In this document: in pieces, positions 1 through 12,438 of the stretch | Layout of the letters: each line of letters begins with the position of its first letter | Numbering within the stretch: the stretch's first letter is position 1 | Assembly (NCBI RefSeq): GCF_033115175.1 | Contig: NW_026909196.1 | Span: 8,246,001-8,310,000, forward strand | Direction: 5' to 3' | Length of the DNA stretch: 64,000 nt | From: Lepus europaeus | Lineage: Eukaryota > Chordata > Mammalia > Lagomorpha > Leporidae | Position numbers and translations under genes: made by a program | The notes under the pieces: generated by a model | The model's database searches: none | What the model saw: the letters and a program-made list of their open reading frames with translations, nothing else | What the model was told of the DNA's origin: nothing

Positions 1-690
1 CTCCAAAACCATTTTCACTGTGATTTTCTCGGTCCATTACTTATGAATTCCATACCACTTTGTCCGGATATGGATGGATGAAACCAGAAATATCCGGTTG
101 TGTTTTGGCTAACTCAATCCCCGATGTTGCTACAGCCTCTGTGTTTGTGTTTTCTGGATATTTTCCATGGACTTTATTGTTTTGAATGTTTTTTTCATAG
201 AACATTTAATTTTGTACCGTAGAAACACAAATAGGTTCAACGTGGGGACACCAGCTCTACACATTCCTGTATTCCAGGGAGAAATCTAGAGGAACTGCAG
301 CAAACAAACATGATATTTCTGTTTGTATAGATGACATTTTATGCACTTGCCTAAAGAAAAGATTTTGCTTTTCTCCAAAACAATTTTTACTGCGATTTTC
401 TCGGTCCATTGCATACGAATTCCACACCACTTTGTCCGGATATGACTGGATGAAACCAGAAATATCCGGTTGTGTTTTGGCTAACTCAATCCCAGATATT
501 GCTACAGCCTCTGTGTATGTGTTTTCCGGATATTATCAATGGACTTTATGGTTTTGAATGTTTTTTTTATCAGGGAACAGTTAATTTTGTACCGTAGATA
601 CAATAATTGGTTCCATACGGAGACACCAGCTCTACACATTCATATTTTCTAGCGAGAAAGCTAGAGGAACTGCCGCAAACAAACACGATA
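1..690. repeat. 372-bp tandem repeat (two units; second split by ERV A)
   Basis: The sequence starting at position 1 recurs at position 373 with a period of 372 bases; the two units are close copies. The second unit is interrupted at 693 by ERV A and its last ~60 bases resume at 5909-5971. Because the window starts inside the array, more units may lie to the left. Each unit contains several TATCCGG-type words. No coding potential is visible. I do not recognise it as a named satellite. Confidence 0.8.
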
Positions 691-693
691 TTG

Positions 694-1125
694 TGTCGGA
701 GGCCACCCGACAAACCACATGGAGACACGCATCACTCAGTCAATTCATCACCACGTTTATGGCCTCATCGCGTTCCAAGCCATAGTAGGGGGCCCGGCGA
801 TGAGGGACTGGAGGCAGTCTCCCTAAGGAAACCCTTCAGTCTCCAGTAGCAAGCACCAAGAAACACAAGGATATATACCCCAGGCCCCATACAGATAACA
901 TTCATTGTGTGCAATCATGCATAGCACAGGAACAGAGCAAGTTTACAAAGTAGCAATGATCAGGGTACAAGCTCTGCAGATAGTGCAAAGAACATCATAA
1001 ACCTTCATCAGAAGTCACATCCTGCCTGCAGGAATATGGGACGAAAAGTCTTGGAAACAGGATTAGATAAGGGACAGCCTCAGCCTGCTGCATCTCATGT
1101 CGGGCCAGGGCCACTGGCCCCGACA
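694..1125 (-). repeat. ERV A 3' LTR
   Basis: This is the 3' LTR in the minus-strand sense, 432 bp. A TATA-like run (TATATA) lies near 870-878. The poly-A signal present in the other LTR as AATAAA is CATAAA here (minus strand of 756-761), so this copy has lost the canonical signal. The U3 end on the minus strand starts with a near-perfect inverted repeat (TGTCGGGGCCAG and CTGGCCCGACA) that could form a terminal hairpin. Confidence 0.93.
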
Positions 1126-1138
1126 TCTCCCCCTTCTT
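1126..1138 (-). promoter_or_regulatory. Polypurine tract of ERV A (active position)
   Basis: The minus strand reads AAGAAGGGGGAGA immediately before the TG of the 3' LTR. That is the position and composition of the plus-strand primer of reverse transcription. Confidence 0.85.
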
Positions 1139-1260
1139 GTTTGTACAAGAGTGGCCTGGTGTTTATGGTAACCGGTGTCTACACTGTCCAGAGGGCCGCG
1201 GGGGAGGATCCATCCCCCACAAGTCCCTCGCGTTAAATGCTGAATGGCGTGGACTCATGC

Positions 1261-1373
1261 CTGTCTTAGGTGCCCCGCAGCGCTTACTCTGCTTACCCGT
1301 CATCAAGGATATAGGAAGCATGTCCTGCCCTCTGTCTTAGGTTGCTAGAGAAGCCTGCGAGTGCTTACCCGTC
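1261..1373 (-). promoter_or_regulatory. CTE-like RNA export hairpin, copy 3
   Basis: The minus strand has GACGGGTAAG (1364-1373), ACCTAAGACAG (1332-1342), GACGGGTAAG (1292-1301) and ACCTAAGACAG (1261-1271). These are the two strands of each TAP/NXF1-binding internal loop of the type D retrovirus constitutive transport element, in the same order. The arms between them (1343-1363 and 1272-1291) can pair over 15 base pairs (one G-U) with two single-base bulges, giving the rod with two rotated loops known from CTEs. The role in export of unspliced RNA is inferred from that likeness. Confidence 0.85.
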
Positions 1374-1629
1374 GTTGACTACCGGTCCACCCTAAGAACA
1401 GTGTAGGAGCAAGCGGTCAATGAGGCAGTTAGGAAGAGAGAGACCGAGGCTTCCACGGCATATCACATACTGCAGCCCCCTGTTTTAGAGTGTCCTAGAG
1501 GGTATGTACTGTCCTTTTGATAGCCTCTCTGTTTGCACACATTGGAACGGTGGGAACGTTTGGTTGTATTACTTCACATCAGTCTACAGGCAGGCAGAAG
1601 ACAGAGGTTGTGGGGGCTGGCTCCCCACA
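1374..1629. other. Unassigned ERV A interior, with LTR-like start at 1629
   Basis: No reading frame was recognised. On the minus strand a TGTGGGGAGCC-type start sits at about 1629, just after the polypurine-like run at 1631-1645. This looks like the first bases of another LTR U3 region, cut short before CTE copy 3. Confidence 0.4.
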
Positions 1630-1630
1630 G

Positions 1631-1645
1631 CTCCCCCTTTTTTTA
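1631..1645 (-). promoter_or_regulatory. Second polypurine-tract-like run inside ERV A
   Basis: The minus strand reads TAAAAAAAGGGGGAG, followed after one base by TGTGGGG. It lies 16 bases downstream (minus sense) of CTE copy 2, so the order CTE, purine tract, TGT repeats that of the real 3' end. It is probably a relic of an older proviral 3' end. Confidence 0.6.
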
Positions 1646-1660
1646 CTTTAGGACCAGCGC

Positions 1661-1785
1661 CTGTCTTAGGCGCCCCTGAGCGGAGTGGCAGCTTACCCGT
1701 CTTTGCCAGAGGGTCAACTTGCATGAGCAGTTTCAGCCCTCCGCTGTCTTAGGTTGCATGCCATCCCTCAAGGCACTTACCCGTC
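1661..1785 (-). promoter_or_regulatory. CTE-like RNA export hairpin, copy 2
   Basis: The loop words occur on the minus strand at 1776-1785 (GACGGGTAAG), 1744-1754 (ACCTAAGACAG), 1692-1701 (GACGGGTAAG) and 1661-1671 (GCCTAAGACAG, one change). The spacer arms 1755-1775 and 1672-1691 can pair over 16 base pairs with three single-base bulges. Their sequences differ from those of copies 1 and 3, yet pairing is kept, which argues for selection on structure in the parent viruses. Confidence 0.85.
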
Positions 1786-1790
1786 TCTGG

Positions 1791-2194
1791 CTACTGGTCC
1801 AAGAAACTAAGAAACACCTGCTGTATTGCAGAGGAGGGGGGTTTTGTAGCGATGACTTCGAATGGGGACCAAATATCTGTGTCCAGTTGTGTTAAGAACC
1901 CAATCTCTTGCCGTAGTTCACGCAGCAAACGAGTGAAATTACTATCCCAGGTATGGTTTAAGGTGGCACCTAAAGAGCGAGACAAATTAGCAAGACGAGT
2001 ATAGTTATGCCAGGTAAACGGAGTAGCGCAAAGCACGACAGATTGAACCAAGCAGGGGGTTCCCCACATCCCCGTCTAAGATTCAGTTCTTCCTGGAGAA
2101 CGTTGACCCGTTGGTTTAGTAATAAGATTCCTGAATGGATATGCTGATCCACTGCCACTCGGAGCGTTCTTGTTTGATCATTCTTCTGGAGCAT
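1791..2194 (-). pseudogene. Env transmembrane-subunit fragment, class II type
   Basis: Two overlapping minus-strand frames (2194-1970 and 2069-1791) together give a heptad-rich stretch, then cysteines, then a segment with LCATPFTW and several N-glycosylation sites. This is the layout of the ectodomain of a betaretroviral transmembrane protein. A frameshift separates the halves near 2050. It is a different envelope lineage from the CX6CC fragment at 2522-3197. CTE copy 2 follows it directly. The family call is by eye and moderate; not functional. Confidence 0.5.
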
Positions 2195-2282
2195 GGGAAT
2201 AGGTGACCTTTTTTCCTTTCAGGAATTTCACAAGCCAAGACTGACCTTGACTTGTCTATGACTTGTTTATGGGCTGCCTACA

Positions 2283-2296
2283 TCTCCCCCTTTTTT
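2283..2296 (-). promoter_or_regulatory. Third polypurine-tract-like run inside ERV A
   Basis: The minus strand reads AAAAAAGGGGGAGA directly followed by TGTAGG at 2282-2277. The same GGGGGAGA then TG arrangement marks the true 3' LTR at 1126/1125. It lies 20 bases downstream (minus sense) of CTE copy 1. Confidence 0.6.
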
Positions 2297-2315
2297 ATTT
2301 AACTGAGAATGGCCT

Positions 2316-2428
2316 CTGTCTTAGGTTGCCCTCAGTCATCTCTGTCCTTACCCGTCATTGGTAACTCTGGCAGCTTGGCCTAGAGCCCTGTCTTAGGTTG
2401 GTACAGGATGCTGAGCATCTTACCCGTC
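2316..2428 (-). promoter_or_regulatory. CTE-like RNA export hairpin, copy 1
   Basis: Loop words on the minus strand are GACGGGTAAG at 2419-2428 and 2347-2356, and ACCTAAGACAG at 2388-2398 and 2316-2326. Arms 2399-2418 and 2327-2346 can pair over 13 base pairs with two bulged A residues. The flanks add an outer GAATGG/CCATTC stem. The apical part can close through a short CTCT/AGAG stem. All four loop strands match the type D retrovirus CTE consensus as I know it. Confidence 0.87.
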
Positions 2429-2521
2429 TCTGAGTACCATTCCAGCCCAACATTAGGTGAGAGATGAAACATACAGCCAAATATTAATTATTTGTGATTA
2501 CAAATAATGATGAATGTCAGT

Positions 2522-3197
2522 TCATACAGACTGTAGCCAAGTCAGCATAAAATGCAGAACACACAGAAAACATCCCATACCAAGTAGGAAAAGCAGTAGT
2601 GGTCCAGTCAACATTAATAACCAATGAATCCATTGAAACCCTCCAAATGTTAGGGGGTTAGTAATAAACATGTTTTGTATTTTACTCTTAAGTTTATCAA
2701 TAACAGACTCTATATATGGCACATTGTTAGTAATGTTAAAACAACATTTTCCTGTTACAGATTTACAACTTATATGATCTTTTAACATCAAGTAATTGTT
2801 AGCTGCATGGTTTAAAAGTACTCCTGAGTGAACTTGATCCAATGTTTCGGCTATATTGGACAGTCCAGTAGCAGTAAGATTAATTGTTTTGGTCACTGAA
2901 TATGCAAGCCTTCGCAGTCCACGGTTATTTCCAAAGGCCAGTCCAGGAACACTTACTACTGGTACAGCCATGGCCAGGGCAATGTCCTCTCCTATTAGGA
3001 TGACATTGCCATTACAGTCTTTAGGTGAAGCATGTTGCCGATGCGCTCTATCCGCCACTGTAAATACAGATGTCAGCATCGGGGCCACACAGTCCAGGGA
3101 GCAATTGCAGAAGTTATCAGAGGCTAACGATGTGAAGGCATATTTGCTACATAAAAAAACCCACCCCTTAGGAGTCCATGTCCCATACCAGTATTAG
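2522..3197 (-). pseudogene. Env SU-end/TM fragment with CX6CC motif
   Basis: One open minus-strand frame runs from about 3197 to a stop at 2522 (225 codons). It shows a cysteine-rich end of a surface subunit, a hydrophobic stretch like a fusion peptide (ALAMAVPVVSVPGLAFG), a helical region, the CX6CC motif CKSVTGKCC (minus strand of 2741-2767), and a C-terminal membrane span (LLMLTGPLLLFLLGMG). CX6CC is typical of gammaretroviral and type D envelopes. The upstream surface subunit is missing and no start is in context, so it is a remnant. CTE copy 1 follows about 90 bases downstream. Confidence 0.65.
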
Positions 3198-3719
3198 ATT
3201 AGGTGTATATCATTGATTGGCGATAGGATCCCTTTATTGTACCGATTGTAAAACCTTAATAACTTGTGCAGGCTGTGCACTCCGTAACTTGTCATTTTAA
3301 TTTTTACTCAATCCTGAGCAGAGAGCCCATTCCTTTGCCAAAGAGGCGAACTGAGGGTCTTTCCAGCCAGGAACATCACAGGTTACACATGTAACTTTAG
3401 TTTTTCTTTTAAAGAAAGGCATTGCTTTGTATACTTGTAGATTCTGTTGACTATACCAATTTGTGACAGCAAATTGTTTTTTAGCTGTCTGCTGTGCACA
3501 GACTTAGTTACTTTTAGTTTAATCTGCAAGAAATACGCTGCAAGCCTTATAGTGCACACTAAAGTTATTTAGAGGAAAGATGGTAAAGGAGTATAGATTA
3601 ACAGAATGTTGCAATAAACATGGCTCCATTGCTTTAATAATACTATAGCAAGACAGTCCACTGATTCCTGTTGGGAGGGCCTGAGGCTGGCCCCGCTTCC
3701 AGTTTTCTAAACTCTGTTT
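3198..3719. other. Unassigned ERV A interior
   Basis: This is AT-rich retroviral interior with no frame longer than about 60 codons that I can place. Short minus-strand stretches look coding but could not be matched to a family. Confidence 0.3.
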
Positions 3720-4092
3720 TTTAATGAATTACCTTTTTTATCAGTTTTGGAGTGACATTTATTGGCCCAATGCCTTCCCCTTTAGCACTGGGGGAATATA
3801 CCAGGAGGAGCCTTATTTTGATTTTTGACTTTTGGACAATTTTTGTACATGTCCCTGCTGTCCACATTTATAGTACCCTCATTTATTAGGTAGTCCTCCT
3901 TGATGATTTTTGTAATGACATACCATGTAGAGCGGCAGGTTCTGAATGTCCTGTTTTTAAGTGAATCCATTTTGCTAATCCCTCATCAAAGGAACTGTCA
4001 CAGAACACCTCAGTCATAGTAGCCAATTGATTCATGTTTACATTGTACTCACGTTTAGCAGAATTTATAGTGCCGTGGGCATCACTAAGCAA
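3720..4092 (-). pseudogene. Gag fragment (capsid end and nucleocapsid)
   Basis: The minus strand between about 4092 and 3720 contains, over shifted frames, a capsid-like end followed by nucleocapsid sequence. The second zinc-knuckle shape is visible near 3750-3790, with C, then RGRHWANKC, then a CHSKTDKKGN-like tail typical of class II Gag; one codon after the first C is a stop. It is broken by stops and frame changes. It lies downstream (minus sense) of the glycoprotein-like segment, the reverse of normal retroviral order, which supports a rearranged interior. Confidence 0.5.
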
Positions 4093-4132
4093 TCTTCACA
4101 AAGCACCGGAAAAGAATCCATACTGAGAATCA

Positions 4133-4560
4133 GACATTATTAGTAATCATTACAGGCATGTTTAACATGTAGCTTGACTGTGTGTTCCCCTGGGATGAAG
4201 CAGCAGCAGCAGAGGCTTGCTCCGGCTCCCTCTCAAAGCCCCAAGGACAAGGGTGGCTCATTGCCAAGATTTTAGGCAAGCAGTGCATCCCGTCCCGGAT
4301 CTTGGCCAGAGAGCCAAGACATGAAGCATGCCCACCTGTTTATCAGAAACATTCCTTTATCCTCCTCCCCAGGAACTGGCCAGGCTCCCAAGGAGCAGGA
4401 GAAGGTCATTTGGCAACAAAGTTACTTGTCCACCAGAGCTGAACCTAGATACAAGCCTCTTTATTTTAAAAATTTGTCCTTACATTTGGCCCTAGGGCTG
4501 CATTGAGAGGTAGACATAATTAACACATTATAAGAATACAATACAAATTTTTCATACAAG
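4133..4560. other. Unassigned ERV A interior, possibly an LTR piece
   Basis: GC-richer than its neighbours. The minus strand has AATAAAG at about 4460 followed by a C/T-rich stretch, which resembles the R/U5 part of an LTR, but no matching second copy is in the window. No coding frame recognised. Confidence 0.25.
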
Positions 4561-4574
4561 TATATATCCAGCAA

Positions 4575-4932
4575 TCAAACACAATAATACTCAATGTGTT
4601 TTAAGGGTAAATTGAAACATAACTGAGGGAGAATAGCTTCTTGGGCACCCATGTCAAGGACATAAAAAACAGTACCATTCCAATACAACAACTCAAGCTG
4701 CTGCAGACAGCCTGAGAACTGGCTAGACAATCCCATGGCATGGAGATCTGAGGCATTGATACTTGTTAAACAGACATGTTGAGGCGCACACAATCCAATT
4801 AACAAATGCGCTAACATTTTGCATTACTCTGAAATTAGTGATTTGGGTTTCATTAAATATTTGTAACATCTCTTTTTGATAAGACAACAAATTTTTTAGC
4901 GGATGGAACATGGTGGGTAACCATTTAGCCAT
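4575..4932 (-). pseudogene. Glycoprotein-like ERV fragment
   Basis: Two overlapping minus-strand frames (4932-4723 and 4817-4575) read as a cysteine- and asparagine-rich protein with N-glycosylation sites (NVS, NAS, NGT), typical of a viral surface glycoprotein. A frameshift joins them near 4790. A further short piece at about 5160-5010 may be its upstream part. I cannot name the family. It sits in the position where gag should be. Confidence 0.3.
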
Positions 4933-5435
4933 AATGATAGTAGCCTCTTACTATCTGTAATTGTTACATTTTTGTAGGTTTGTGCAATCTTAACTACTTG
5001 TGGCATATTTTGATTTACATTTTTTTTAAAGCCAACCACGCATAATCTGCCCAAGCATTCCTATCAATAATAAGGGTAGAGTTAGTACATAATACAAAAA
5101 TAGAATGGGTAGTCCGGACACTTTGACACTGCTTGCTTTGTTTCTTTAAATGCGCATTTTCCATAGTTATGGCTTAGAGGGGCTCCTGAGAAATTTTTTG
5201 TCTTTTAAGTCCTACACGTGCCAATTGCTCCCTCCTTTCTCCTGCAACCGGCGTCCCGGGAGCTTTTAACAAGGCCTTTATATCCTTGTCACATTTAGAT
5301 GTGACTGTATATTCCCCATGGGCAATAGGAGAGGCTCCCCGGGCAAGCCCTAGTCTGCCACGCCCTACTCGTGCTTATGTGCCTCCCTTTTAATCCCTAC
5401 GGCCTGCTACCGCCGCAGCCTTCCCTCTTACAGAG

Positions 5436-5446
5436 GCTTACCTGTG
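5436..5446 (-). promoter_or_regulatory. Likely major splice donor of ERV A
   Basis: The minus strand reads CACAG then GTAAGC, a good donor, about 30 bases after the 5' LTR. Retroviral leaders carry the donor for subgenomic RNA here. Confidence 0.6.
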
Positions 5447-5456
5447 GATGAGATGA

Positions 5457-5474
5457 ATCCGAGTCACGGCACCA
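5457..5474 (-). promoter_or_regulatory. Primer-binding site, tRNA-His type
   Basis: Two bases after the 5' LTR the minus strand reads TGGTGCCGTGACTCGGAT. This is complementary to the 3' end of tRNA-His over all 18 bases as I know that tRNA. Type D viruses and lentiviruses use tRNA-Lys, so this separates ERV A from them. Confidence 0.85.
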
Positions 5475-5476
5475 GC

Positions 5477-5908
5477 TGTCGGAGGCCACCCGACAAACCA
5501 CATGGAGACACGCAGCACTCAGTCAATTCATCACCACGTTTATTGCCTCATCGCGTTCCAAGCCAAAGTAGGGGGCCCGGCGATGAGGGACTGGAGGCAG
5601 TCTCCCTAAGGAAACCCTTCAGTCTCCAGTAGCAAGCACCAAGAAACACAAGGATATATACCCCAGGCCCCATACAAATAACATTCATTGTGTGCAATCA
5701 TGCATAGCACAGGAACAGAGCAAGTTTACAAAGTAGCAATGATCAGGGTACAAGCTCTGCAGATAGTGCAAAGAACATCATAAACCTTCATCAGAAGTCA
5801 CATCCTGCCTGCAGGAATATGGGACGAAAAGTCTTGGAAACAGGATTAGATAAGGGACAGCCTCAGCCTGCTGCATCTCATGTTGGGCCAGGGCCACTGG
5901 CCCCGACA
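5477..5908 (-). repeat. ERV A 5' LTR
   Basis: 432 bp, paired with 694-1125. It keeps the canonical AATAAA (minus strand of 5539-5544) and the TATATA box near 5653-5661. Differences from the other LTR were counted at five single bases. Confidence 0.93.
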
Positions 5909-5971
5909 ATATTGCTGTTTGTATAGATGACATTTTATGCACTTGCCTAATGAAAAGACATTGCTTTTCTC
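5909..5971. repeat. Remainder of second 372-bp repeat unit
   Basis: The sequence following ERV A matches the last ~60 bases of the first unit (about 310-372), confirming that the provirus landed inside the tandem repeat. Confidence 0.8.
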
Positions 5972-6256
5972 TTCCAGGATCCAGAGCAGGAGGAGCAGGT
6001 CCTGATTTGCTCCAAGCAGAGGTAGTTCTTGATTCCCTGTGTATAGGAGTCAAACCTTGTTAAGTTGTCACATCCAGAAGCCATCACAGAGGGACTGTGG
6101 GTGCTGCGGAGTAACCTGCAGAGGCATGTAACCAAAGGTTCAGAGGACTGGGTGGCCGTCAAGCTATATAGACACTTCACTTGAGGACTAATGAGGGCTT
6201 GATTTCCAGGGAAGACAAAACAGCTGATAAAATCTTAAACAGCATCCAGTTTCTTT
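5972..6256. other. Short non-repeat stretch between the two proviruses
   Basis: 285 bases of ordinary-looking sequence; I see no gene, repeat or RNA here. Confidence 0.5.
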
Positions 6257-6868
6257 TGAAAGAATTAGGCTGGTTAGGTTTAAGATGGAGTTGCTTGAGC
6301 TAACTGCATATTGTTCTGCTTCTGTGCAAATTGGCTGGGCTTGCAATAATTTTTGCAAGAAATAAAAATGCTTTCATAAGATAGCTGAACTTTAGCTGAA
6401 CTTGCAGTATGTAATCGTTTTTGTAACCGTTTTAGGAACTATAAAGGCAGAAGTTAACAAAAAATTGTACCCAACCTATGTCCTGTTTTAACACCACAAG
6501 TTATTACACACTACATTGACCCCTGCCCTTGCTTGCTCAAGCTAGAAATGAAAACCACAAGGCACGTACAGCATGTAACTTCTTCCCTTTTACCCTGGAA
6601 ACCCCCTTCTTACCCTGTAATCCTTTAGGTTACCAAATGAAATTGTAACACTGTGGAAATATGCTAGTGTTGTGGTTTTAAGCCTTAAATACTCTGTGAA
6701 ATTGATGATCGGGGCCGCTCTCTCTGCACTGCACTAGAGGGTGCTGTTGTGTTGTTGAGACGGCCCATTTGCAAATGCAATAAACTTCCTCTTGCTCTTG
6801 CAGCGATTGGAGTGGAGTCTGTGTTTCTGGGGTCCGGATTGTGGGACACCTGCTTAAGGGGTCTTACA
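6257..6868 (+). repeat. ERV B 5' LTR
   Basis: 612 bp, starting TGAAAG and ending TTACA. A TATA-like TTAAATA lies near 6685 and AATAAA at 6779-6784. The paired copy is 11823-12434. Confidence 0.93.
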
Positions 6869-6873
6869 TTTCT

Positions 6874-6891
6874 TGGGGGCTTGTCCGGGAT
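6874..6891 (+). promoter_or_regulatory. Primer-binding site, near tRNA-Pro
   Basis: TGGGGGCTTGTCCGGGAT follows the LTR by five bases. It differs at one base (T for C at position 9) from the tRNA-Pro site used by murine leukemia-type viruses. Confidence 0.85.
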
Positions 6892-6926
6892 TCAGACCCC
6901 CCCAGATTCACCCTCCATCTCCCAAT

Positions 6927-6937
6927 CGGAGGTAAGT
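6927..6937 (+). promoter_or_regulatory. Likely splice donor of ERV B leader
   Basis: CGGAG then GTAAGT gives a consensus donor at 6931/6932, 63 bases after the LTR. It would serve the env message. Confidence 0.65.
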
Positions 6938-7239
6938 CTCTTCTGTTTCGTGTATTTTTGTGTGTTTCACTGTCCATTTCCCCGGGGCGCCTGGCGTACC
7001 GGTGTTTATGTTTACAGGTGATAAGAGCCAGTAGTAGGTAAGGACAGACGTGTCCGGACCCCTGGCTCAAGCCCTGGAGGACGCTCCAGCGGTGTTCTGG
7101 GAGAGGGCTGGTTAGGCAGCCGCTCCCATCGGAAGTTTTGGTTTCAGTTTTGTTTCGTTCCATTGTCACGCGCAGTATGATTGTGTGTTTTGTAATTACA
7201 TTCTGTGTTATGATTATGATTTACTTTTTCTTTCCCAAT

Positions 7240-8244
7240 ATGAGACAGGGATTAACCACACCTTTAAGCCTTATTTTAGATCATTGGAAAGAGGTCCAAG
7301 AACGGGCCCAAATCTTGTCCGTGAAGGTGCGAAACCAGGTGCAAAATCCCCCAAATTGGGTAAAACCTTTTCTTTTCTCCAACAGGGTGGTGGCGGAGCT
7401 CAATCCTGCTGCTCCCGTCACCGCCCTAAAAATGAAGCCCAGCCCTGAGTTGCCAACGGCCACCCCGGCGGCGGAGTCGGGCCCCAAACCCACTCCGCCC
7501 CTATCTGTGACACCTCTAGACCCACTTTTGCAGGCCCTCCTGACTACGGAAGAAAGACAACGAGTTCTCACGGAAGCTCGGAAGAGCGTTCCGGGGGACA
7601 ATGGTCAACCCACCCAACTGCCAAACGAAATTGATGCAGCTTTCCCGTTAACCAGACCAGATTGGGATTTTAATACGGCAGCCGGTAGGGAACGACTCCG
7701 TCTCCATTGCCAGATTCTCCTGACAGGTCTCAAAAGGGCAGGGAGACGCCCTACTGATTTGGCTAGGGTAATCCAGGGTAAGGAAGAGACCCCAGCGGGG
7801 TTTCTGGAAAGGTTAGCTAAAATCCTGGTCACCGCAGTGAGCAAATTAAACAGACAAGATAGGTCATGTTACGGTAGAGGTCAGACAGGGAAATACCCGG
7901 GAGATAATAATAGACCACGGAAAAGACCACGGATAGAACGAGACCAGTGTGTGTACTGCAAGGAGAGAGGACACTGGGCCAGAGACTGTCCAAATAAAAA
8001 TGTCACCAGAGAAAAGAAGGAGGACGGTGTGGGGGCCAGTGAGGCCCTACTGAAACAGCTGAAACAGGAGCTGTCCCTGCTGCCCCTAACGGAGCCTACC
8101 ATCACCGCCAACTTTAGCCTCTTTGCTCCCTTTGGCAGTGGCTGCCCGATCAGCGGGCAGAGCCAGCTGAGGGGGGCCTTTGGAAGTGGGGCGCTGCCTG
8201 CCCACTGGCCCCGACTACTACTCCCAGCTGCTTACCAAGAATAA
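7240..8244 (+). pseudogene. gag: Gag remnant (matrix, shortened capsid, nucleocapsid)
   Basis: An open frame from 7138 to 8244 contains Gag from the ATG at 7240. The matrix start reads [16 protein letters not shown], where the usual glycine at position 2 (the myristoylation site) is arginine. A proline-rich middle follows, then a capsid segment, then a basic region and one zinc knuckle, [14 protein letters not shown] (7948-7989, CX2CX4HX4C). The product is about 335 residues, well short of the usual 500 or more, so much of capsid is deleted. The frame then runs out of register into pol-derived sequence after about 8110. The 34 codons before 7240 are leader read-through. It is unlikely to form particles. 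Confidence 0.8.
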
Positions 8245-8600
8245 CCTGAGTAACCCTGAACGTATTCGGTTTGAAACAACGACCTCCCTCGATCCCGCCA
8301 CGCTGCTACCGGAACCAGGAGACCAAAACGCAGGTCAGTCATAACTGCCAACAGGTGCTGGCCGAAGTCCATGGGGCCCGAGAGGACCTGACAGATCGGC
8401 CCCTACCAGATGCTGAGTACACCTGGTATAATGAAGACAGCAGCTTCCTCCATCAAGAAGCCTTCCCGACCAAGGAAGGAACCGCACTAATATTTCCCCG
8501 ATTTGGACTACCAAAAGGTCCTGGGGTCAGACAACGGACCCGCTATCGTCTCCCGGGTGAGTCAGTTGGTGGCCAGGGTGCTGGGGATTTAGTCAGGTAA
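8222..8600 (+). pseudogene. pol: Pol remnant: reverse transcriptase end and RNase H start
   Basis: The start reads in one frame (LLTKNN, NPERIRFET, DPATLLPE), then shifts near 8325 to a frame with HNCQQVLAEVHG and DRPLPDAEYTWY. These are the connection region and the start of RNase H of gammaretroviral Pol. Protease and the catalytic part of reverse transcriptase are missing. The frame ends at 8600. Confidence 0.7.
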
Positions 8601-8602
8601 AA

Positions 8603-8707
8603 CGTATGAGCAGAACAATTAAGGAGACCTTAGCTAAATTAATAGTGGAGACTGGCACTAGGGACTGGGTCAAGTTGCTGCCGATGGCTTTTTTGAAGGC
8701 TCGTAAT
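8603..8707 (+). pseudogene. Integrase fragment, first arm of a duplicated segment
   Basis: Codons here give [18 protein letters not shown] and a following PMAF, part of the integrase core-to-C-terminal region. Nearly the same segment recurs at 9362-9458 with about 15 percent base difference. The two arms enclose unrelated sequence. Confidence 0.65.
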
Positions 8708-9361
8708 ATTACTGTTGCTAGACTTTAATTGTCCGAGGACTAACTCTGGAAAGGAGCTAAAGTTAACTATCTGTTTTAATTGACTGAGTGTTTTGCAGTA
8801 GTCCTGATTGATCTGGCTTTGTTAGTCTTCTGGTGAGGTAAGAAGAGCCAACCAGGCTCTATGGAAAACATCAAGTATAAAAGTGTGTACTTGGTAAAGA
8901 ATGTTGTTAGTAAGAAGGGCTAAAAAGAAAAGAGCTTTTTAAATAAGGAAAGGACATGGTTTGTAAGAATGACTTTATCCTGATGGCTAGTTTACTCTAG
9001 ACTGGAATGGAAATGGTAAAATATTTAAAGTAAGTTGAAGAGGGTGAGTGAAAGTTACAAAAAATTATAAAAATAAAAAAATGATGGGAGGCCGGCACAG
9101 TGTTCCTAAGGCTACTGTCACATACCATAAGACAGATAGCAAGAGAAAATACCCAGATCTCCCTCGACGCCCATATGCCAGCTGTGAAGAAGTTACGGAA
9201 GACGGAACTCCATCCATAATCCCAAAATTTTGGGTATTCCGCTTGAGGGAAAATGTTAGGCAGGAAGCCAGTTGTGAGCTTATGTGTGTGTGACAGGCCT
9301 AAAGATAAGGCATTTATATGCATCTGCATCTCAAACACCCTGCTCCCCTCCTTTGTTTCAA
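8708..9361 (+). mobile_element. Foreign insert within ERV B pol
   Basis: About 650 bases without gammaretroviral pol content sit between the two integrase arms. From 9254 the insert reads as the start of an LTR (TGTTAGG). That LTR shares a 20-base identical word, ATATGCATCTGCATCTCAAA, and a GCTTATGTGTGTGTGACA word with the LTR-like repeats at 61.1-63.5 kb (there on the minus strand). The bases before 9254 include a purine-rich GAGGGAAAA, so 8708-9253 may be the 3' interior of that other ERV. Confidence 0.6.
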
Positions 9362-9900
9362 AACAACAATTAGGGAGACCTTAACTAAGTTGATAATGGA
9401 GACTGGCACTAGAGACTGGGTTGAATTGCTGCCAATGGCTTTGTTTAGGGCCCGCAAAACACCTTCTGTATGTGGACTAACATCTTATGAAATATTGTAT
9501 GGAGGCCCTCCACCCGCGGCAGATTTGTTGGGACCCAGTATTGACTCTTTTGCAACATCCCCTACTTTGCAGACTCGTTTCCGTGCCTTGCAGCTGATTC
9601 ACAAGCACATAGGGAAGCAGCTGGCTGCCGCATATCAGTCCAAAGGCCCCGTGCTCCCACACTCGTTCCAGGCTGGGGACACCGTCTACGCCACGCTGGA
9701 AAGGACCTTACACAGTACTACTGACCACACCGACGGCGGTAAAGGTGGACGGAATCGCCGCCTGGATTCACGTGTCGCACGTCAAGAAAGCAGCAACTGA
9801 ACAGAGTCAAGGGACAGGCAGCCCTGCCGACAAGCCGACACCGGAATGGAGACTACAACGCACTCAAAACCCCCTCAAGATAAGACTATTTTGCTCTTAG
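9362..9900 (+). pseudogene. pol: Integrase C-terminal remnant
   Basis: The frame 9318-9800 carries the integrase region [18 protein letters not shown], then SVCGLTSYEILYGG and [17 protein letters not shown] from the C-terminal domain. A frameshift near 9716 moves the natural continuation ([17 protein letters not shown]) to another frame, which stays open past the env ATG at 9846. A pol/env overlap is normal for gammaretroviruses. The catalytic residues upstream are lost. Confidence 0.75.
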
Positions 9901-11765
9901 TATTCTTTTTCAGCATGGTTGTAGTAAACTCAAGTCCTCATATCCCTTATCATATTACTTGGCAGCTTATTAATTTAAGAACCGGAGCAATTGTCAATAG
10001 CACCTCTGGTTTTAATGTTCTTAGTGATTATTTTCCTGAATTGTATTTTGACCTTTGTCAACTTTTTGATGCTGATGATGTATGTGTTGGGAAGGGAGGA
10101 ACCTATGTCTGTCCCGGGGGAAAGAATGGAAAATCCCTTCCTGGTTGCGGGGGCCCCAAAGTAGGATACTGTGAAAAATGGGGATGTGAAACCACTGGAA
10201 GTGCACACTGGAGACCCTCCTCTTCATGGGACCTGATTACTATCGGGGCGGCTCCAGGTATAATATTTAGTAACTGTGGGGGTAGGGACTGTAGTACTTG
10301 TATAAATGGGACGTTGGGTAGGTGTCACCTCCAGATCCTTCGCTTCACAGATAAGGGAAAACAGGACAAATGGGTCGGGCCTAAGTCATGGGGCATATAC
10401 TTGTATAGACCGGCCAGAGACCCCTTTGCCCTATTCGCCTTGAGCCGGACAGTTACTGTCGCAGCCGTATCGGTTGGACCAAATAAAATATTAACAGATC
10501 AGAGGAGCCCAACCTCCCCACACTTTGCAAAGGGGAAATCTCTTGGGCAGGTACTTGTCAGAAATCGGCCCAGTCAGACGCCTGCCAGCAGTCAGTCCAG
10601 TCTGGCTTCCCCGACAACCGTTTTCCCGAATAAGCACGTAGTAGCAACGCCTCCTCCGCCCGGCCCCGAAAATTCCTCCTTACCCGGAACGGGGGATAGG
10701 CTCCTCAACCTAATACATGGGGCCTTCCAAGCATTGAATGGCTCTGACCCCGATAGGATCCGGGATTGCTGGCTGTGCCTAGCCTCACCTCCCCCTTATT
10801 ATGAGGGAGTAGCTGTCGTTGGAAATTGGACCAACCATACCAATGTCCCTCCCCAGTGCTCCAATCTGCCATCCCACTGACTAACTCTTACAGAAGTATC
10901 AGGACAGGGACTTTGCGTAGGCTCCATTCCCCCTCAATATCAGGGCCTCTGTAATAAAACTATGACTCTCAAACCAGGCACCTATTATTTAACAGGACCA
11001 AATGGGACATTTTGGGCATGCAATACAGGCCTAACCCCCTGCTTGGCAGGACAAGCTCATAATCGAACTCATGAATGGTGCGTCATGGTTGAAGTATGGC
11101 CTCGGGTCACACTACATGACCCTGAGGAAGTCTACCGACAATATGAGGGAAACCTCCGGCTCCCTAGGGAACCCTTATCCATAACGCTAGCCCTCATATT
11201 GGGAGGACTCACAGTCGGGGGCATCGGAGCAGGCATAGGTACCGGAGCCACTGCTCTGTCAAAGACAAATCAGTTTCACCTGTTACAGCAAGCTATGCAT
11301 TCAGATTTACAAGCTTTAGAAGAATCCGTCAGTGCCTTGGAAAAGTCCTTAACTTCACTTTCCGAGGTAGTATTACAAAATAGAAGGGGGCTGGACCTGG
11401 TATTTTTAAAGGAAGGGGGACTCTGTGCAGCCCTAAAGGAAGAATGTTGTTTCTATGCGGATCACACTGGAGTGGTCAGAGATAGCATGGCAAAATTAAG
11501 GGAAAGACTAAAACAACGACAGAGCCATTTTGAGGCAGGACAGTCATGGTTTCAGAGCTGGTTTAACTCATCCCCTTGGTTAACAACCCTAATTTCCACC
11601 ATCACAGGACCTTTAATAATATTACTTTTAATTTTAACCTTTGGGCCCTGCATAATAAATAGGCTTCTTCAGTTTATTAAAAGTAGATTGTCTATCACCC
11701 ACGCCTTGGTCCTGACCCAGCAGTACCAAAGTTTAAAAACGGAGGACATAGAAGAAAAATTTTAG
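9846..11765 (+). pseudogene. env: Env glycoprotein, open except for one in-frame TGA
   Basis: One frame runs from ATG 9846 to the stop ending at 11765 (about 639 codons) with a single TGA at 10878-10880. Visible parts in order: signal peptide ([13 protein letters not shown]), surface subunit, CWLC motif (10767-10778) that in this family bonds to the transmembrane subunit, minimal furin-type site RLPR near 11158-11169, hydrophobic fusion peptide, immunosuppressive-type region with CX6CC (CAALKEECC, 11424-11450), membrane span ([17 protein letters not shown]), and a tail with YQSL. As it stands, translation gives a truncated surface subunit. Preservation is far better than gag-pol. Confidence 0.85.
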
Positions 11766-11804
11766 GATGCAGGTATTCCTTAAATTTTAAGATTAAAATT
11801 TGCC

Positions 11805-11822
11805 AAGAAAAAGAGGAGGGAG
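11805..11822 (+). promoter_or_regulatory. Polypurine tract of ERV B
   Basis: AAGAAAAAGAGGAGGGAG, all purine, ends directly at the TG of the 3' LTR. Confidence 0.85.
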
Positions 11823-12434
11823 TGAAAGAATTAGGCTGGTTAGGTTTAAGATGGAGTTGCTTGAGCTAACTGCATATTGTTCTGCTTCTGTGCAAATTGG
11901 CTGGGCTTGCAATAATTTTTGCAAGAAATAAAAATGCTTTCATAAGATAGCTGAACTTTAGCTGAACTTGCAGTATGTAATTGTTTTTGTAACTGTTTTA
12001 GGAACTATAAAGGCAGAAGTTAACAAAAAATTGTACCCAACCTATGTCCTTTTTAATACCACAAGTTATTACACACTACATTGACCCCTGCCCTTGCTTG
12101 CTCAAGCTAGAAATGAAAACCACAAGGCATGTACAGCATGTAACTTCTTCCCTTTTACCCTAGAAACCCCCTTCTTACCCTGTAATCCTTTAGGTTACCA
12201 AATGAAATTGTAACACTGTGGAAATATGCTAATGTTGTGGTTTTAAGCCTTAAATACTCTGTGAAATTGATGATCGGGGCCGCTCTCTCTGCACTGCACT
12301 AGAGGGTGATGTTGTGTTGTTGAGACGGCCCATTTGCAAATGCAATAAACTTCCTCTTGCTCTTGCAGCGATTGGAGTGGAGTCTGTGTTTCTGGGGGTC
12401 CGGATTGTGGGACACCTGCTTAAGGGGTCTTACA
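11823..12434 (+). repeat. ERV B 3' LTR
   Basis: 612 bp, paired with 6257-6868. It keeps AATAAA near 12344. Followed by the target duplication cttt. Confidence 0.93.
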
Positions 12435-12438
12435 CTTT

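What the first reader, a model, noticed from the sequence alone, without database searches (positions are those of the whole stretch)
1261..2428. Three separate CTE-like RNA export hairpins in one provirus
On the minus strand of ERV A the paired words GACGGGTAAG and ACCTAAGACAG occur six times, in three two-loop sets (2316-2428, 1661-1785, 1261-1373). These are the two strands of the TAP/NXF1-binding loops of the type D retrovirus constitutive transport element (established). In each set the spacer arms can pair over 13-16 base pairs although their sequences differ completely between sets, so structure is conserved while sequence is not. Type D viruses carry one CTE; I know of no provirus with three. 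Stronger, multivalent NXF1 recruitment would help a defective genome export unspliced RNA (inference).
Basis: partly seen in the sequence, partly recalled or inferred. Interest (0 to 1): 0.88.

Follow-up and report, generated by a model that had tools for sequence, protein, structure and literature searches.

The report
Young provirus stacking three RNA-export hairpins
A family of recently active, defective endogenous retroviruses in this mammal carries three export-type RNA hairpins because its tail is built from the tail ends of three different retroviruses, each bringing its own hairpin; this makes it natural material for asking whether more hairpins mean better escape of viral RNA from the nucleus.

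Summary
In detail: the minus strand of 1261-2428 holds three two-lobed hairpins of the type D retrovirus CTE plan. A covariance model trained on CTEs of three other retrovirus families of this genome finds these three and nothing else in 64 kb (E 3e-31, 2e-22, 1e-16). Arms fit their own partners across seven families (1 of 5040 permutations). All 30 fetched copies, the window's included, keep all three; six others with both ends read have matching 6-bp target-site duplications. The tail is a chain of three 3' ends: [env TM-CTE1-PPT1-LTR1 piece], [env TM piece-CTE2-PPT2-LTR2 piece], [CTE3-PPT3-LTR3]. Close single-CTE relatives exist for modules 1 and 3, a distant relative for module 2. CTE3 moves with the primer site used: 7 of 8 fetched 5' ends have the 432-nt LTR (PPT3; CTE3 internal); one provirus and three solo LTRs have 936-946 nt (PPT2; CTE3 inside the LTR). 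Singleton substitutions are depleted in all three CTEs; shared variants are not. NXF1 binding and export advantage remain inferred. New variant of a known kind; nearest precedent SERV-K/MER11.

The parts
5909..5914 (.). target-site duplication CAATAT, 5' side
   Evidence: read; same 6 bases at 688-693
5477..5908 (-). 5' LTR of ERV A, short form, 432 nt
   Evidence: direct repeat; 5 differences of 432 to the 3' LTR
5457..5474 (-). primer binding site, tRNA-His-like (tRNA assignment recalled)
   Evidence: sequence after the 5' LTR
2525..3193 (-). module 1: env transmembrane remnant with CX6CC, 223 codons open
   Evidence: PDB sequence matches to ASLV TM and Syncytin-2; 89% nt identity to single-CTE relative L040
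2302..2441 (-). CTE1 (word-to-word core 2316-2428)
   Evidence: model R1 111.5 bits, E 3.4e-31; fold
2283..2296 (-). PPT1, polypurine tract
   Evidence: sequence; same position in L040 and L043
2160..2282 (-). start of LTR1 (TGTAGGCAGCCC...), truncated
   Evidence: match to L040 ends at 2160 and to L043 at 2162
1794..2159 (-). module 2: env transmembrane fragment of another lineage (open frame 2075-1791)
   Evidence: 35% identity over 80 columns, E 1e-13 (single comparison), to the env TM that precedes a CTE in L241
1647..1798 (-). CTE2 (word-to-word core 1661-1785)
   Evidence: model R1 63.2 bits, E 1.1e-16; fold
1630..1644 (-). PPT2
   Evidence: sequence; its use is read from the long LTRs of the C44:28422434 provirus and of L041 and L042
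1460..1629 (-). start of LTR2 (TGTGGGGAGCC...), truncated; first part of the long LTR
   Evidence: long LTR 1629-694 bounded by TSDs in L041, L042; family 3 homology begins at 1459
1247..1386 (-). CTE3 (word-to-word core 1261-1373)
   Evidence: model R1 82.2 bits, E 2.2e-22; fold
1126..1138 (-). PPT3
   Evidence: sequence
694..1125 (-). 3' LTR, short form, 432 nt (long form is 694-1629)
688..693 (.). target-site duplication CAATAT, 3' side

Best explanation
ERV A is a young, non-autonomous provirus whose 3' region is a chain of three retroviral 3' ends, each of the type D layout env end - CTE - polypurine tract - U3. Recombination, most simply template switching during reverse transcription (inferred), put the modules in series, so one RNA carries three two-lobed hairpins, six lobes in all. 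By homology of plan each lobe should bind NXF1:NXT1 directly and export the unspliced RNA without a viral protein (inferred). The three PPTs remain, and two appear to have been used: PPT3 gives a 432-nt LTR with CTE3 internal, PPT2 gives a 936-nt LTR with CTE3 inside U3. Shown: anatomy, structure, copy number, integration signatures, single-CTE relatives, two LTR lengths. Inferred: priming history, NXF1 binding, export, and that the three act together.
For: Model R1 from L001, L039 and L003 gives three hits in 64 kb and no others up to E 10, and three per copy in 30 of 30 fetched copies, one of them (L009) the window's own (19 with default filters; the other 11 gained CTE2 with filters off). 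Arm-swap test: only the true assignment, 1 of 5040 permutations. 40 matches of the whole 1.2-kb tail, the window at 100% and 39 others at 94-99%, the tool scoring only 40 of 1114 candidates. 71 exact hits to a CTE2-to-CTE3 linkage pattern, control 0, of which 70 start with the CTE2 tail. Matching 6-bp TSDs in 6 of 6 short-LTR proviruses with both ends held, plus the window; LTR pairs differ at 1-4 of about 432 sites, 5 in the window. Family 1 relatives L040, L043 and family 3 relative L239, each with one CTE in the stretch held; family 2 relative in L241. L240 joins CTE1 directly to LTR2 across the shared PPT run. Long-LTR provirus at C44 with TSD CTCAGT. Non-CpG singletons in CTE cores 23 over 322 sites against about 53 expected, 26 copies; random spacer blocks as low in 0 of 20000.
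Against: Variants shared by several copies are not clearly rarer in the CTEs (9 over 322 sites against 26 over 766; P 0.7), so the constraint signal rests on singletons alone and is not proof of function. One tested family (Ff) does not pair best with its own arm, giving 6 of 7, and the Fa arm pairing is weak against shuffles, 139 of 2000 as good. Folding z-scores are modest. L003, one of the three training sequences, is 86% identical to CTE1, so the CTE1 hit is not independent. No direct donor of module 2 was found, only a relative at 35% protein identity. The junction at 2160 could not be counted genome-wide because the machine stayed busy. Nothing here tests NXF1 binding.
Confidence: 0.82

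Rival explanations
1. Same anatomy, but the number three is a passenger effect (this rival competes only with the multivalency part of the best explanation). Recombination of 3' ends copies whatever lies between env and LTR; one CTE would do, and the extra two give no benefit.
For: Modules 1 and 2 bring their CTE together with env remnant, PPT and LTR start, and module 3 with PPT and LTR, so no separate gain of CTEs is needed. Shared variants are not depleted in the CTEs. A two-CTE form (L240) and single-CTE families coexist.
Against: All three CTEs, not just one, have fewer singletons than expected (9 vs 17.6, 10 vs 19.1, 4 vs 16.5), and 30 of 30 fetched copies keep all three.
Confidence: 0.4
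2. The hairpins do another job in the RNA, for example masking splice signals (word A resembles a 5' splice site, word B a branch point plus 3' splice site), stability, or packaging.
For: GGGTAAG and CTAAGACAG resemble splice signals (sequence; consensus recalled).
Against: [quoted passage not shown]
Confidence: 0.08
3. The triple set is a local accident: nested insertions of separate proviruses, or one duplicated locus.
For: Five of the 30 fetched copies, all on C223, share a CAATATC flank and look like duplicates of one insertion. L241 shows what a probable nested insertion looks like.
Against: 26 kinds of 3' flank among 30 copies, the five counted as one; TSDs outside the whole chain in 6 of 6; the LTR1 and LTR2 pieces are truncated, so no complete inserted provirus is present.
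Confidence: 0.02

Closest known systems
Constitutive transport element of Mason-Pfizer monkey virus / SRV (type D)
   Same: Two lobes in 2-fold symmetry in an RNA element of about 130 nt near the RNA 3' end (PMC4330390 passages), with the PPT directly downstream (PMC11379458 passages)
   Different: Three per genome with largely different arm sequences; one of them can lie inside the LTR
SERV-K/MER11 (PMC11379458, passages read)
   Same: A 3' end of another retrovirus, env remnant plus LTR-derived piece, was placed by recombination before the own PPT and supplied a tested CTE
   Different: One added module, about 1 kb of MER11-derived sequence, whose export pathway the authors did not yet know; here three 3' ends in series and three recognisable two-lobe hairpins
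Direct repeats of Rous sarcoma virus (PMC3856414, passages read)
   Same: More than one NXF1-dependent export element in one retroviral genome
   Different: 115-nt direct repeats flanking src; NXF1 does not bind them directly
Engineered vectors with 1, 2 or 4 MPMV CTEs (PMC3229575, passages read)
   Same: Serial CTEs in one RNA; more copies in packaging constructs raised particle production
   Different: Man-made copies; in one type of transfer vector more copies lowered titre

Membership tests
Type D retroviral CTE (NXF1-binding) | One hairpin with two like internal loops in 180-degree rotation | tested here: met
   word order and folds in all three sets
Type D retroviral CTE (NXF1-binding) | Stems conserved in pairing, not in sequence | tested here: met
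   arm swap 1 of 5040 over 7 families, own partner best in 6 of 7; model R1 hits
Type D retroviral CTE (NXF1-binding) | Position between env end and PPT/3' LTR | tested here: met
   CTE1 after a TM frame and before PPT1, CTE2 after a TM fragment and before PPT2; CTE3 before PPT3 here and after a TM frame and before PPT3 in L239
Type D retroviral CTE (NXF1-binding) | Loop words identical to those of MPMV/SRV | not tested
Type D retroviral CTE (NXF1-binding) | Match to a curated RNA family | tested here: inconclusive
   Rfam 15 gave no match at gathering score in the window nor up to E 1 in 1-10000; that says only that no curated model reached threshold
Type D retroviral CTE (NXF1-binding) | Direct NXF1:NXT1 binding and Rev-independent export | not testable with these tools
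   needs the bench
Provirus (integrated retroelement) | LTR pair, PBS, PPT and target-site duplication | tested here: met
Autonomous betaretrovirus | Intact gag, pol and env | tested here: not met
   longest minus-strand frame between the LTRs is the 223-codon env remnant; no Pfam domain in the six different minus-strand frames scanned

The most novel reading that the evidence does not exclude
Selection on a non-autonomous retroelement favoured stacking of NXF1 docking hairpins, and a choice between polypurine tracts moves a CTE in and out of the LTR. Long-LTR copies and solo LTRs then scatter a CTE-bearing LTR through the host genome, where it could help export intron-containing host transcripts that end in or run through it.
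Probability: 0.3. Interest if true: 0.82.

Novelty: new variant of a known kind. Interest (0 to 1): 0.62.

Why it matters
In the passages that I saw, CTE copy number was varied only in artificial vectors. Here one genome offers natural elements with one lobe (Fc), three lobes (Fb), one two-lobed CTE (families 1, 3, Fa, Fd), two CTEs (L240) and three CTEs (ERV A), the last with LTR pairs that differ at 1-5 of about 432 sites in the seven short-LTR proviruses measured. That makes it possible to test whether export-element number affects the success of a retroelement. The stack also records how retroviral 3' ends recombine module by module, and shows LTR boundaries moving as a result.

Tried and rejected
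Rfam gave nothing. Scans of IMG/VR and of prokaryote genomes with a looser CTE pattern gave 75 and 107 stretches, each with a single match as far as listed (all 75; 80 of the 107), which I take as chance and did not use. The phage collection had no match. I considered that the three sets might be copies of one another: rejected, since arms differ and the modules have different env and LTR relatives. I considered a nested-insertion origin: rejected for ERV A by TSDs outside the chain; kept as probable for L241. I considered that the long LTR might simply be the ancestral LTR: in L239 an open env frame, not an LTR2 start, precedes CTE3-PPT3 and the short LTR, so the short form has its own ancestry; its 5' end was not fetched. 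The model R1 missed CTE2 in 11 of 30 copies with default filters; with filters off all 11 were found, so this was a filter effect. A homology search with the module 2 frame found one protein without a name. Genome counts of the 2160 junction (and repeats) and of 5' LTR-PBS junctions (asked once) could not be obtained.

Full report
What was checked. Word counts, folds and a covariance model confirm three two-lobed hairpins on the minus strand. The model was trained on CTEs of three other retrovirus families of the same genome (L001, L039, L003). L003 is 86% identical to CTE1 over 114 nt, so the CTE1 hit is not independent of the training set; for CTE2 and CTE3 the nearest training match found by BLAST was 72% (L003 to CTE3). 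Up to E 10 there were no other hits in the 64-kb window.

Structure against sequence. In a first test on five families the own arms gave the best total of 120 permutations; own pairing against shuffled arms was matched by 4, 7, 8, 139 and 1 of 2000 shuffles for CTE1, CTE2, CTE3, Fa and Fd. With seven families the own arms gave the best of 5040; own partner was best in 6 of 7 rows and 6 of 7 columns; Fb was left out as too close to CTE1. Across 30 copies the arm pairs vary (7, 10 and 9 distinct pairs) and stay paired, from -13.2 to -24.7 kcal/mol.

The element. ERV A runs from 5908 to 694 on the minus strand, with 432-nt LTRs that differ at 5 sites, a PBS at 5474-5457 and the 6-bp duplication CAATAT on both sides. 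Between the LTRs only an env TM remnant is open over more than 200 codons; no Pfam domain was found in the six different frames scanned.

The stack. Each hairpin is followed by a purine tract and an LTR-like start: TGTAGG at 2282, TGTGGGG at 1629, TGTCGGGG at 1125. Module 1 matches L040 (89%) and L043 (91%), which in the stretches held carry one CTE and then their own LTR; the match stops at 2160-2162. Module 3 matches L239 (91%) from 1459 onward; there an open env TM frame precedes a single CTE3, PPT3 and the short-LTR start. The module 2 frame is 35% identical (E 1e-13, single comparison) to an env TM in L241, which also stands before a CTE with a 42-nt apical part, like CTE2, and an LTR starting TGTGGGGAGC. 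So modules 1 and 3 have close single-CTE relatives; for module 2 only a distant relative is known.

Copies. Thirty were fetched, the window's own place (L009) among them: all 30 keep the twelve words within two mismatches and all 30 give three model hits, 19 with default filters and 11 with filters off. Their 3' flanks fall into 26 kinds if the five CAATATC flanks on C223 are counted as one. The linkage pattern CTE2-CTE3 has 71 exact matches, control 0; by their visible first letters 70 start with the CTE2 tail, and the other is L240, where CTE1 is joined directly to LTR2.

Two LTR lengths. For eight copies the expected 5' end was fetched: seven have the short LTR, one (L050) showed no LTR in the stretch. 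In the six of these whose 3' end was also held, the 6-bp duplications match in 6 of 6, and LTR pairs differ at 1-4 of about 432 sites. Among the first 100 of 430 exact short-LTR starts, 10 same-strand pairs lie 4.1-5.1 kb apart; none of the 10 upstream members has an LTR2 start in the list, 8 of the 10 downstream members do; of the 80 unpaired starts 13 do. Yet the long form exists: a provirus at C44:28422434 has 936-nt LTRs, duplication CTCAGT and 9 differences, and L041, L042 and L238 are solo long LTRs with duplications. Of the first 100 of 172 LTR2 starts, 53 have no CTE2 upstream and no triple region; one of these is the 5' LTR of the C44 provirus, three are the checked solo LTRs, the rest were not looked at. 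The long provirus was picked because its pair spacing stood out, so these numbers give no rate of PPT use, and use of a PPT is itself inferred from the LTR ends.

Constraint. Over 26 copies (four C223 duplicates dropped) non-CpG singletons number 9, 10 and 4 in CTE1, CTE2 and CTE3 against 17.6, 19.1 and 16.5 expected from the spacer; 0 of 20000 sets of random spacer blocks were as low; the loop words had 7 singletons and no shared variant over 112 sites, arms and apical parts 16 and 8 over 210. With the duplicates kept, 30 copies, singletons were 24 over 322 sites against 120 over 766 (P 0.0002), shared variants 9 and 26 (P 0.7); 63 edge sites were left out. Other windows gave 0.10-0.15 singletons per site (2500-2749 and three in 694-1229) against 0.07 in the CTEs; a 39-site window at 2461-2499 gave 0.26, and windows above 2750 gave 0.32 to 0.73, probably inflated by copies that differ upstream. 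The signal agrees with selection on all three hairpins but is unexpected for mutations after insertion, so I treat it as suggestive.

Mechanism. The two-fold symmetric CTE and NXF1:NXT1 binding to either lobe are stated for type D viruses in PMC4330390 (passages); direct NXF1 recruitment also in PMC10746203 (passages). I infer that each hairpin here does the same. Serial CTEs raised particle production in packaging constructs, but in one type of transfer vector more copies lowered titre (PMC3229575, passages); a CTE and an up-regulated RTE mutant together act more than additively (PMC1363727, passages). Whether three natural CTEs act together is open. The origin is best explained by repeated 3' recombination, as in SERV-K/MER11 (PMC11379458, passages), with the shared purine run as a plausible crossover site (L240).

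In print. Ten searches of the held library listed no title or abstract start describing a natural retrovirus with three CTEs or an LTR holding a type D CTE. Several listings showed only the top of more hits, for example 20 of 166 and 12 of 219. Most subscription papers are not held, among them the 2001 paper on TAP-binding sequences cited in PMC3621094. So this is a weak negative. PMC3856414 (passages) describes the direct repeats of Rous sarcoma virus, so more than one export element per genome is known.

Noticed in passing
window 6257-12437, + strand: A second provirus (ERV B) with LTR repeats 98-99% alike, a gag frame with Gag_p30 and env frames with TLV_coat.
   Followed up: partly
window 1-692: Tandem repeat units spaced 372-375 nt (probably a host satellite) next to ERV A; C223 copies L009, L010, L011, L030 and L035 share the CAATATC flank and look like later duplications.
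   Followed up: partly
L005-L008: Family Fc has a single-lobe CTE half of about 36 nt before its PPT; by my count it makes up 22 of the 100 places listed.
   Followed up: partly
L003: Family Fb has an extra single lobe that starts 95 nt upstream of the first word of a two-lobe CTE resembling CTE1.
   Followed up: partly
L241 (C2:84039600-84043000): 3' end of an Fd provirus next to an env TM frame, a CTE with a 42-nt apical part, PPT and an LTR starting TGTGGGGAGC; probably a nested insertion.
   Followed up: partly
L053, L054 (C18:80035000-80041100): What looks like tandem provirus units sharing a long LTR.
   Followed up: no
C44:4662805-4676400: A triple copy with a solo long LTR (L238, TSD GGAGGG) 13 kb away on the same strand; the same pair spacing occurs three times in C44, one of them looked at.
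   Followed up: partly
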